In this document: one piece after another, positions 10,343 to 20,426 of the stretch
Position numbering within the stretch: position 1 is the first letter of the stretch
Layout of the letters: each line of letters opens with the position of its first letter
Assembly: GCA_020846295.1 (NCBI GenBank)
Contig: JADLEF010000196.1
Coordinates: forward strand, 1-37,916
Direction: 5' to 3'
DNA: 37,916 nt
DNA from: Acidimicrobiales bacterium
GTDB taxonomy: Bacteria; Actinomycetota; Acidimicrobiia; Acidimicrobiales; CAIXPF01
Notes under the pieces: generated by a model
What the model was told of the DNA's origin: nothing
Database searches by the model: none
The model's input: only the letters and a program-made list of their open reading frames with translations
Translations under genes and position numbers: made by a program

Positions 10343-10810
10343 ATGCTCGACGCCGGCACCGACGCCCCCGAGTTCTCGCTGCCCGACCAGCACGGCGGGA
10401 CCGTGCGCCTCCAGGACCTGCGCGGCCGCTGGGTGCTGCTGTGGTGGTACCCCAAGGCCGCCACCCCCGGTTGAACCCTGCAGAGCCAGGCGTTGCGTGA
10501 CAACGCCGACCGCTTCGAGTCGCTGGGGTGCGAGATCCTCGGTGCGTCCTTCGACACCGTGGCCGAGAACCTCGCCTTCGCCCGGGCCCAACGACTTCCG
10601 TTCCGACTGCTGTGCGACGTCGACCGCGCCGTCGGCGCCGCCTACCAGGTGCTGCGCCCCGCCGGCGACCCGCTCGCCGCCTACCCGGAACGCTTCGCGT
10701 ACCTGATCGATCCGCACGGCGTGATCCGGCGCTCCTACGCGGTGAGCGACGTCAGCGACTTCGCCCGGCTGGTGCTGACCGACCTCGAGCGCCTGCAGGA
10801 GCGGGCATGA
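10343..10810 (+). CDS. Selenocysteine-containing peroxiredoxin (Bcp/AhpC-TSA type); in-frame TGA 10472..10474 predicted to encode Sec
   Basis: Continuous peroxiredoxin homology on both sides of an in-frame TGA: MLDAGTDAPEFSLPDQHGGTVRLQDLRGRWVLLWWYPKAATPG(TGA)TLQSQALRDNADRFESLGCEILGASFDTVAENLAFARAQRLPFRLLCDVDRAVGAAYQVL...YLIDPHGVIRRSYAVSDVSDFARLVLTDLERLQERA. The TGA replaces the Cys of the TPGCT motif. The supplied ORF 10493..10810 is only the 3' fragment, from an internal TTG. Confidence 0.88.
10489..10507 (+). promoter_or_regulatory. Candidate bacterial SECIS element downstream of the Sec TGA in the peroxiredoxin
   Basis: GGCGTTG-CGTGA-CAACGCC: perfect 7-bp stem and 5-nt loop with G as its second base, loop G 23 nt after the TGA. 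Confidence 0.7.
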
Positions 10811-19049: not shown

Positions 19050-20393
19050 TCACACCGTGGAGCGAGCGAACTGCTCGTCGGTCGGCTCCGCTCAACAGAA
19101 CCAGGGTTCGGTCAGGTAGGGCACCGCGGCCGGCTGGGCCACCGCTCCCGGCGCCGCACCCGGACCCGACCCGGCCGCGGCCCGGGCGAGGTCGCGCAGC
19201 TGCGTGTGCACGACACGGTGGTGCGCCGCCCGGCCCGAGGGAGACTCGTCGACGCCTGCGTGACGGCGCACCACCTCGAGGGCGCGGACCGCCAGGGCAT
19301 CGACCGCCGGATCAGGGTGCCGCCACGGGTGGCTCAACTCCGCAGCGTCGTAGGGCCCGGCGACCGCCCGCACCTCGGGCAGGTCGAGCAGGCGGCTCCG
19401 GGCGGTCACCAGCAGGCGGATGCAGTACTGCACCGGCGGGACCACCGACTCGAGGCCGAGCGCGGCGACGGCGTCGAACAGGGCGGCGTAGGACGCCGGC
19501 GTGGTCCACGGGGTGAACGGGACGAACGTCGGGTTGAAGGCGATGCCCGCCGCCCGGCACGCGGCCACCGCGCCGGCGACGTCCGCAGCCCGATGATCCT
19601 TGCCCAACCACGCCAGGGTGGCGTCGTCGAAGGACTCCACCGCCGAGGTGACCAGCACACAGCCGGCGACGGCGAACCGTCCGAGCAGCTCGCCCGCCGC
19701 CAGGAGGTGGTCGATGCGGGCGGTCAGGTCGAAGCTGAGCGAGGGGAACGCGCCGTGCACGGCGTCGACCACCCGGGCGGCGTGGGCGGGGCCGTTGAGG
19801 AAATCGGCGTCGGTGAAGGTCAGATGGGCGGCCCCCCGCTCGACGAGGGCGGCGACGTCGGCGAGCACGGCATCGACCGGCGACGGCCGGAACCGGCCGT
19901 CGAACACCGGGACCACCGGGCAGTGGCGGCAGCGGTGACGGCAGCCGCTCGACGCCGCCACCGCGCCGACCACCCGCCGGCTGCCGTCGGGCAGCACCAG
20001 CTGGGCGTAGCGGTCCAGCGCCGGCGGCACCGACGGCACCGACGACCCGGGCGCGCCGGCGGCGCGAGCCACCGACCCGACCCAGGGCTGCACCCCTCGG
20101 GCGGCGAGCAGCTCCTCGTTGAGCACGGCGTACAGGCCGAACGCGCCCTGCCGGGTGCGCGGCGAGCGCGCCGCCACGGCGTCGATGAGCGGGAGCGCCA
20201 ACCGGGTGGCGGTGTGCATCGGCAGCGACCACAGCACCAGATCCGCCTGCGCGGCGGCCGCCTCGTCGAAGGGGTCGAGGCTCACGTCGCACAGCCGTGC
20301 CGACCAACCGGCCGCAGCCAGCTCGCGCACCGCGGCCCACGCCTCGACCGGGAACCGGCCGAGGTCGTAGGTCGACACCACGAGCGCGTCCAT
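19050..20393 (-). CDS. CUAEP-tail radical SAM protein, predicted selenoprotein; in-frame TGA 19092..19094 predicted as Sec
   Basis: Radical SAM CX3CX2C in SSGCRHRCRHCPVVP; Rossmann-like N-terminal region. Reading through TGA at 19092..19094 gives ...PYLTEPWFC-U-AEPTDEQFARSTV then TGA at 19050..19052. The CUAEP tail matches a radical SAM (seleno)protein family I recall being named for a CUAEP/CCAEP tail. Confidence 0.85.
19059..19089 (-). promoter_or_regulatory. Candidate bacterial SECIS element downstream of the TGA in the radical SAM gene
   Basis: On the minus strand, CGAGC-AGTTC-GCTCG (5-bp stem, 5-nt loop with G second) at 19063..19077, with an outer GGAG/CTCC pairing. Loop G is 21 nt after the TGA. 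Confidence 0.6.
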
Positions 20394-20426
20394 ACCGTTC
20401 AGTACGCGACGGAGCGGTATGGACGC
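20386..20426. repeat. 12-bp perfect inverted repeat enclosing the radical SAM start codon
   Basis: GCGTCCATACCG (20386..20397) and CGGTATGGACGC (20415..20426) with a 17-nt spacer. Start codon complement 20391..20393 lies in one arm. Confidence 0.85.

What the first reader, a model, noticed from the sequence alone, without database searches (positions are those of the whole stretch)
19050..20393. CUAEP-tail radical SAM protein: apparent stop codon is a predicted Sec codon at the extreme C-terminus
Seen in sequence: the radical SAM ORF (CX3CX2C: CRHRCRHC) appears to end ...LTEPWFC-TGA at 19092, but the next codons are GCG GAG CCG ACC GAC GAG CAG TTC GCT CGC TCC ACG GTG TGA. The product would be ...EPWFC-U-A-E-P-TDEQFARSTV. 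I recall an NCBI family annotated as CUAEP/CCAEP-tail radical SAM (seleno)protein, which this tail matches literally. The substrate and function of this family are, to my knowledge, not established. A vicinal Cys-Sec pair on a C-terminal tail suggests a redox-active arm or metal ligand for the radical SAM active site (inference).
Basis: partly seen in the sequence, partly recalled or inferred. Interest (0 to 1): 0.95.

Follow-up and report, generated by a model that had tools for sequence, protein, structure and literature searches.

The report
Selenocysteine-tailed radical SAM enzyme
A soil-type actinobacterium encodes a radical SAM enzyme whose apparent stop codon is read as selenocysteine on a conserved tail; the family has a name but no known function, and comparing genomes shows that it travels with an amino-acid-ligase partner and is the sister of the arsenic-antibiotic enzyme ArsL, which gives a first testable idea of what it makes.

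Summary
The minus-strand ORF 20393-19050 reads ...LTEPWFC-UGA-AEPTDEQFARSTV-stop. The UGA is almost certainly selenocysteine: in 101 relatives the pair before AEP is CU, CC, UU or UC, all 60 in-frame stops are UGA, and a SECIS-type hairpin (loop G in 58/58) follows the UGA in Sec forms, not in Cys forms. This genome has selA, a selB fragment and a Sec-containing selD; its tRNA-Sec is not cleanly assembled. NCBIfam NF040546 already names the family, without a function; the window protein scores 430 bits against a cut-off of 500 (divergent, ~35 residues missing). New here: (i) the family is the sister of ArsL; (ii) it is tied to an L-amino-acid-ligase-type ATP-grasp enzyme (near it in 45/79 loci, co-occurring in 23/24 actinobacterial genomes, unlinked but present in this genome); (iii) some ArsL clusters carry a distantly related ATP-grasp gene; (iv) many Cys-form genomes lack selD, so selenium is not the substrate. 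Best guess: ArsL-like 3-amino-3-carboxypropyl transfer to a soft acceptor held by the Cys-Sec arm, then ligation. That chemistry is inferred.

The parts
19050..20393 (-). CDS of the Cys-Sec-tailed radical SAM selenoprotein, 447 aa, ATG start, terminal stop TGA 19052-19050
   Evidence: NF040546 429.9 bits; Pfam Radical_SAM 38.5 bits; AlphaFold2 mean pLDDT 93
19920..19943 (-). CX3CX2C (CRHRCRHC, residues 151-158), [4Fe-4S]/SAM site
   Evidence: the three Cys are invariant in A1, A5 and A6
19092..19094 (-). UGA read as selenocysteine (residue 434)
   Evidence: all 60 in-frame stops at the pair in relatives are TGA
19083..19097 (-). C433-U434-A435-E436-P437 tail motif
19061..19079 (-). Bacterial SECIS-type hairpin 13-31 nt downstream of the UGA; 5-bp core CGAGC/GCTCG, loop AGUUC with G at 19071
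   Evidence: register and loop as in 58 Sec-form relatives, compensatory changes, absent from Cys forms; the minimum-energy fold of the window's own 42 nt is a different hairpin
20034..20105 (-). Region about residues 97-120 where the protein lacks ~35 residues (the family's G-E-x-E and R..F..P.R stretch)
   Evidence: AlphaFold2 confidence dips to 66 there

Best explanation
The ORF is a UGA-recoded selenoprotein, a divergent relative nested inside the CUAEP/CCAEP-tail radical SAM family (NF040546), the sister family of ArsL. SelB and the hairpin just after the UGA put selenocysteine into a C-terminal arm with a vicinal Cys-Sec pair; relatives in Sec-less genomes use Cys-Cys. By analogy with ArsL (C-terminal RCCLKC tail; a 3-amino-3-carboxypropyl radical from SAM is added to As(III)), the most likely mechanism is that the CX3CX2C [4Fe-4S] cluster cleaves SAM to a 3-amino-3-carboxypropyl radical, the Cys-Sec arm holds a soft acceptor (a metalloid, metal ion or sulfane/thiol sulfur) in the active site, and the resulting amino acid is joined to a second amino acid by the conserved partner, an ATP-grasp L-amino-acid ligase (in this genome unlinked, contig C344). 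Shown: recoding signature, Sec machinery, family, ArsL sistership, ATP-grasp linkage. Inferred: 3-amino-3-carboxypropyl chemistry, acceptor binding by the pair, order of the steps, dipeptide product.
For: Sec: near-universal C[CU]AEP with all in-frame stops TGA; SECIS hairpin with loop G in 58/58, 84% of pairs formed against 46-54% when slid, 41% in Cys forms, beyond 500 synonymous resamplings; selA in 18/19 Sec-form and 13/27 Cys-form genomes, and the one exception has a selD with an in-frame TGA; own-genome selA, selB fragment and selD GAGUACK. Kinship: NF040546 430 bits, then ArsL NF040542 227 bits, next family 37 (5); ArsL itself scores 336 bits on NF040546; vicinal CC at both C-termini. 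Partner: ATP-grasp_4 + LAL_C2, close by in 45 of 79 loci and in 14 of 27 mainly actinobacterial loci; 23/24 genomes with the rSAM against 10/373 without (p about 2e-28); present in this genome. ATP-grasp genes also in ArsL clusters of Pantoea, Priestia and Alicyclobacillus, the Pantoea one distantly related (hhalign probability 98.6, 21% identity). Selenium is not the substrate: 13 of the 14 Cys-form genomes without a full selA hit also lack selD. ArsL chemistry: PMC8552651.
Against: No residue-level or biochemical evidence for 3-amino-3-carboxypropyl chemistry; close radical SAM sisters can differ in reaction. Fold neighbours are AprD4 and cobalamin-dependent radical SAM enzymes, most of which make 5'-deoxyadenosyl radicals or methylate. 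Arsenic genes are nearly absent near the family (ArsM in 1 and ArsR in 1 of 100 loci), so As(III) is unlikely. The window gene is not next to its partner, has a long branch and a deletion, and might be drifting. The tRNA-Sec gene of this draft genome is not cleanly assembled.
Confidence: 0.42

Rival explanations
1. The Cys-Sec pair is a redox arm: it reduces a disulfide or sulfenate, or relays electrons or a hydrogen atom to the radical SAM active site or substrate, and the reaction is a conventional 5'-deoxyadenosyl-radical one (dehydration, epimerisation, C-C or C-S chemistry).
For: A vicinal pair that tolerates CC, CU, UC and UU is what a redox pair would show; repeated Sec/Cys exchange, at least 19 changes on the tree; nearest fold AprD4, a radical SAM diol dehydratase.
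Against: The sister family ArsL, a 3-amino-3-carboxypropyl transferase, has the equivalent CC in a three-Cys tail (chemistry from PMC8552651).
Confidence: 0.28
2. The tail is a ligand of an auxiliary Fe-S cluster or other metal site in a SPASM-like manner.
For: Neighbours are NfuA-like and Fe-trafficking (YggX) proteins; tandem cysteines are discussed as Fe-S ligands in Dph2 (PMC11048331).
Against: Only two conserved soft residues in the tail; Sec is not a usual Fe-S ligand; NfuA stays next to the ATP-grasp gene even where no CUAEP rSAM was found, so it is not specific to the tail.
Confidence: 0.15
3. The enzyme makes an organoarsenical like ArsL.
For: Sistership with ArsL; ATP-grasp genes in some ArsL clusters.
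Against: No arsenic efflux, ArsM or ArsR genes in the neighbourhoods apart from two loci.
Confidence: 0.1
4. UGA is a true stop; the tail is a chance ORF extension.
For: RefSeq gene models can truncate here; T. roseum WP_012643191.1 ends at ...ESWFC.
Against: Tail conservation across several phyla, all-TGA stops, SECIS hairpin, Sec machinery.
Confidence: 0.02

Closest known systems
CUAEP/CCAEP-tail radical SAM (seleno)protein, NCBIfam NF040546
   Same: Best match by 200 bits; CX3CX2C core, same C[UC]AEP tail, same SECIS position; nested among members in the tree
   Different: 429.9 bits against a cut-off of 500; ~35 residues missing in the N-terminal half; long branch; not adjacent to the ATP-grasp partner
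ArsL, arsinothricin biosynthesis radical SAM (NCBIfam NF040542, RCCLKC tail)
   Same: Same domain layout (27-32% identity), vicinal Cys pair at the C-terminus, ATP-grasp neighbour in some clusters
   Different: Tail is RCCLKC directly after the core, with three Cys and no Sec; ars-type neighbourhood, absent here
AprD4 and B12-type radical SAM enzymes (PDB 6fd2, 5ul3, 6wte)
   Same: Closest solved folds (TM-score about 0.6)
   Different: 20% identity or less; a C-terminal Cys/Sec tail was not seen in the matches
SAO (Sec-assisted organometallic) system
   Same: SaoD/DsrE family protein beside 3 members, within 2.5 kb in 2 more; several of its selenoproteins carry CU motifs (PMC13188914)
   Different: No other Sao genes were sought or seen in the clustering; core enzyme unrelated

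Membership tests
NF040546 CUAEP/CCAEP-tail radical SAM | Radical SAM core with CX3CX2C | tested here: met
NF040546 CUAEP/CCAEP-tail radical SAM | C-terminal C[U/C]AEP | tested here: met
NF040546 CUAEP/CCAEP-tail radical SAM | Curated score cut-off of 500 bits | tested here: not met
   429.9 bits; therefore described as a divergent relative nested in the family by phylogeny, not as a clean member
NF040546 CUAEP/CCAEP-tail radical SAM | ATP-grasp partner in the genome (found here, not part of the model) | tested here: met
   absent from the window, present in the genome at C344
Bacterial selenoprotein | UGA codon with a SECIS hairpin just downstream, G in the apical loop | tested here: met
Bacterial selenoprotein | selA, selB, selD in the genome | tested here: met
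   selB truncated by the contig end and below its cut-off
Bacterial selenoprotein | tRNA-Sec (UCA) | tested here: inconclusive
   46.3 bits against 47, UCA anticodon, acceptor mismatches and short D arm; a second identical 3' part runs off a contig end
ArsL (NF040542) | RCCLKC tail and 450-bit cut-off | tested here: not met
   227.1 bits, tail CUAEP
3-amino-3-carboxypropyl-transferring radical SAM enzyme | Cleavage of the SAM C-gamma-S bond, 3-amino-3-carboxypropyl product | not testable with these tools
   needs enzyme assay

The most novel reading that the evidence does not exclude
A widespread, so far undescribed two-enzyme pathway of soil bacteria (ArsL-like radical SAM with an interchangeable Cys/Sec pair + LAL-type ATP-grasp ligase, often beside NfuA-like or iron-trafficking genes) that makes a 3-amino-3-carboxypropyl-derived amino acid on a soft non-arsenic acceptor and ligates it into a small peptide-like metabolite, with Sec, including a UU diselenol form, as a catalytic upgrade.
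Probability: 0.27. Interest if true: 0.85.

Novelty: new variant of a known kind. Interest (0 to 1): 0.6.

Why it matters
NCBI has named the family but its function is unknown to my knowledge; a 2026 review of the prokaryotic selenoproteome does not list it (PMC13188914), and no held paper mentions it by the CUAEP name. The ATP-grasp linkage and the ArsL sistership turn an orphan selenoprotein into a two-enzyme pathway that can be assayed. Relatives with CC, CU, UC and UU at one place give a natural series for asking what selenium adds to a radical SAM enzyme. Gene models can truncate these proteins, as in Thermomicrobium roseum.

Tried and rejected
Chance stop read-through: rejected. Selenium as substrate: rejected, Cys-form genomes often lack selD. 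Arsenic as the usual substrate: unlikely. Horizontal gain of the window gene from Acidobacteriota: the tree groups it with L058 and L086 (95-97%), but the AU tests do not reject actinobacterial placements (p 0.43 and 0.31), so not claimed; its ATP-grasp partner groups with actinobacterial sequences. Rfam gathering search of the window: nothing. Search for true ArsL in the class of G425: none over the cut-off. First tail listing had wrong strands and was redone. Two papers by Haft and colleagues cited in the review are not held, so whether they treat this family was not checked.

Full report
Observation. On the minus strand 20393-19050 encodes 447 residues if TGA 19094-19092 is read through: a radical SAM core with CRHRCRHC at residues 151-158 and the end LTEPWFC-U-AEPTDEQFARSTV. 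The neighbours are an enoyl-CoA hydratase upstream and a DUF2510/scramblase-type protein downstream, neither obviously related.

Family. NCBIfam NF040546 (CUAEP/CCAEP-tail radical SAM (seleno)protein) is the best match at 429.9 bits, under its cut-off of 500; the ArsL family NF040542 follows at 227 bits and everything else is at or under 37 bits. The deficit comes with a shortened stretch around residues 97-120 and a long branch. In the tree the protein nests among members, so I call it a divergent relative inside the family.

Is the UGA selenocysteine? Three independent lines say yes. First, relatives: a search of 397 genomes of the phylum and a scan of species genomes gave 101 tails (the window's own locus among them). 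The pair is CU in 57, CC in 42, UU in one (L107) and UC in one (L126); every one of the 60 in-frame stops is TGA, while the terminal stops of the Sec forms are 35 TGA, 13 TAG, 10 TAA. Second, RNA: in 58 Sec forms the positions 13-19 and 25-31 after the UGA pair in 84% of cells against 46-54% when slid by 1-3; G-C, C-G and A-T exchange; loop position 2 is G in 58 of 58. Cys forms pair in 41%. Resampling synonymous codons never reached the observed pairing. The window keeps the 5-bp core CGAGC-AGUUC-GCUCG, although its minimum-energy fold is a different one. Third, machinery: selA is over its cut-off in 18 of 19 Sec-form genomes and 13 of 27 Cys-form genomes; the exception carries a selD with an in-frame TGA. 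The window's genome has selA, selB cut by a contig end, and selD with Sec at its active site, GAGUACK. A tRNA-Sec-like gene with the UCA anticodon scores just under threshold and a second identical 3' part runs off the same contig, so this part is inconclusive.

The partner. ORFs around 79 relatives fall into few recurrent families: an ATP-grasp protein with an L-amino-acid-ligase C-terminal domain (PF13535 + PF18603) in 45 loci, mostly directly downstream; an Fe(2+)-trafficking protein (PF04362) in 34. In 27 mainly actinobacterial loci the ATP-grasp gene is found in 14, usually directly upstream, and an NfuA-like protein in 12. Genome-wide, 23 of 24 actinobacterial genomes with the radical SAM gene (over 280 bits) have the ATP-grasp gene (over 350 bits), against 10 of 373 without (genomes are related, so the p-value is only indicative). 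The window's genome has it too, on contig C344, unlinked. In the 15 other ATP-grasp loci fetched, mostly apart from the radical SAM gene, NfuA-like ORFs sit beside the ATP-grasp gene. In three loci a SaoD/DsrE-type gene lies beside the radical SAM gene.

ArsL. ArsL makes hydroxyarsinothricin by adding the 3-amino-3-carboxypropyl group of SAM to As(III) (PMC8552651). It aligns along its length with this family and ends in RCCLKC, again with a vicinal pair. ArsL-type clusters of Pantoea, Priestia and Alicyclobacillus carry an ATP-grasp gene, the Pantoea one a remote relative of the partner found here. This parallel is the main ground for the mechanism I propose. It is not arsenic by default: ars genes are almost absent around the family. 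It is not selenium either, since 13 of the 14 Cys-form genomes without a full selA hit also lack selD.

Structure. AlphaFold2 gives a confident model (mean pLDDT 93, last three ten-residue blocks 77-86). Nearest solved folds are AprD4 and cobalamin-type radical SAM enzymes, which fits the family but does not settle the reaction. I could not read coordinates, so the distance from the Cys-Sec pair to the cluster is not known.

Verdict. The Sec call itself is already implied by NCBI's name. What is added is the evidence for recoding, the full Cys/Sec series, the ATP-grasp partner, the ArsL sistership and the exclusion of selenium as substrate. Step by step (my estimates): Sec insertion 0.97; family affiliation 0.95; functional link with the ATP-grasp ligase 0.9; ArsL-like 3-amino-3-carboxypropyl chemistry about 0.45; acceptor held by the pair about 0.4.

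Noticed in passing
L107:7535-7597; L126:11333-11395: Chloroflexota relatives with UGA-UGA (Sec-Sec) and UGA-TGC (Sec-Cys) instead of Cys-Sec before AEP.
   Followed up: partly
L190:5932-7476 (NC_011961.1): Thermomicrobium roseum WP_012643191.1 is truncated in the record at a UGA; the DNA continues UAEPLEDPSGP... with a possible SECIS hairpin.
   Followed up: partly
L194:5063-6268, L199:7563-8765, L192:1-1197, L193:1-1159: ATP-grasp genes within ArsL-type clusters of Pantoea, Priestia and Alicyclobacillus; no held paper has both arsinothricin and ATP-grasp.
   Followed up: partly
L050:6621-6705 and 10509-10549 (G000:C1): Two copies of the 3' part of a tRNA-Sec-like gene 3.8 kb apart, one at the contig end, one with a poor 5' half: possibly an element integrated at tRNA-Sec, or a misassembly.
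   Followed up: partly
L139, L141, L142, L132, L119: SaoD/DsrE-type gene close to the radical SAM gene, a possible tie to Sec-assisted organometallic systems.
   Followed up: no
window 20384-20426: Inverted repeat GCGTCCATACCG...CGGTATGGACGC spanning the ATG of the radical SAM gene: terminator of the upstream gene or a start-masking hairpin (seen).
   Followed up: no
L158-L167: Ten actinobacterial genomes have the ATP-grasp and NfuA-like pair but no CUAEP radical SAM hit.
   Followed up: partly
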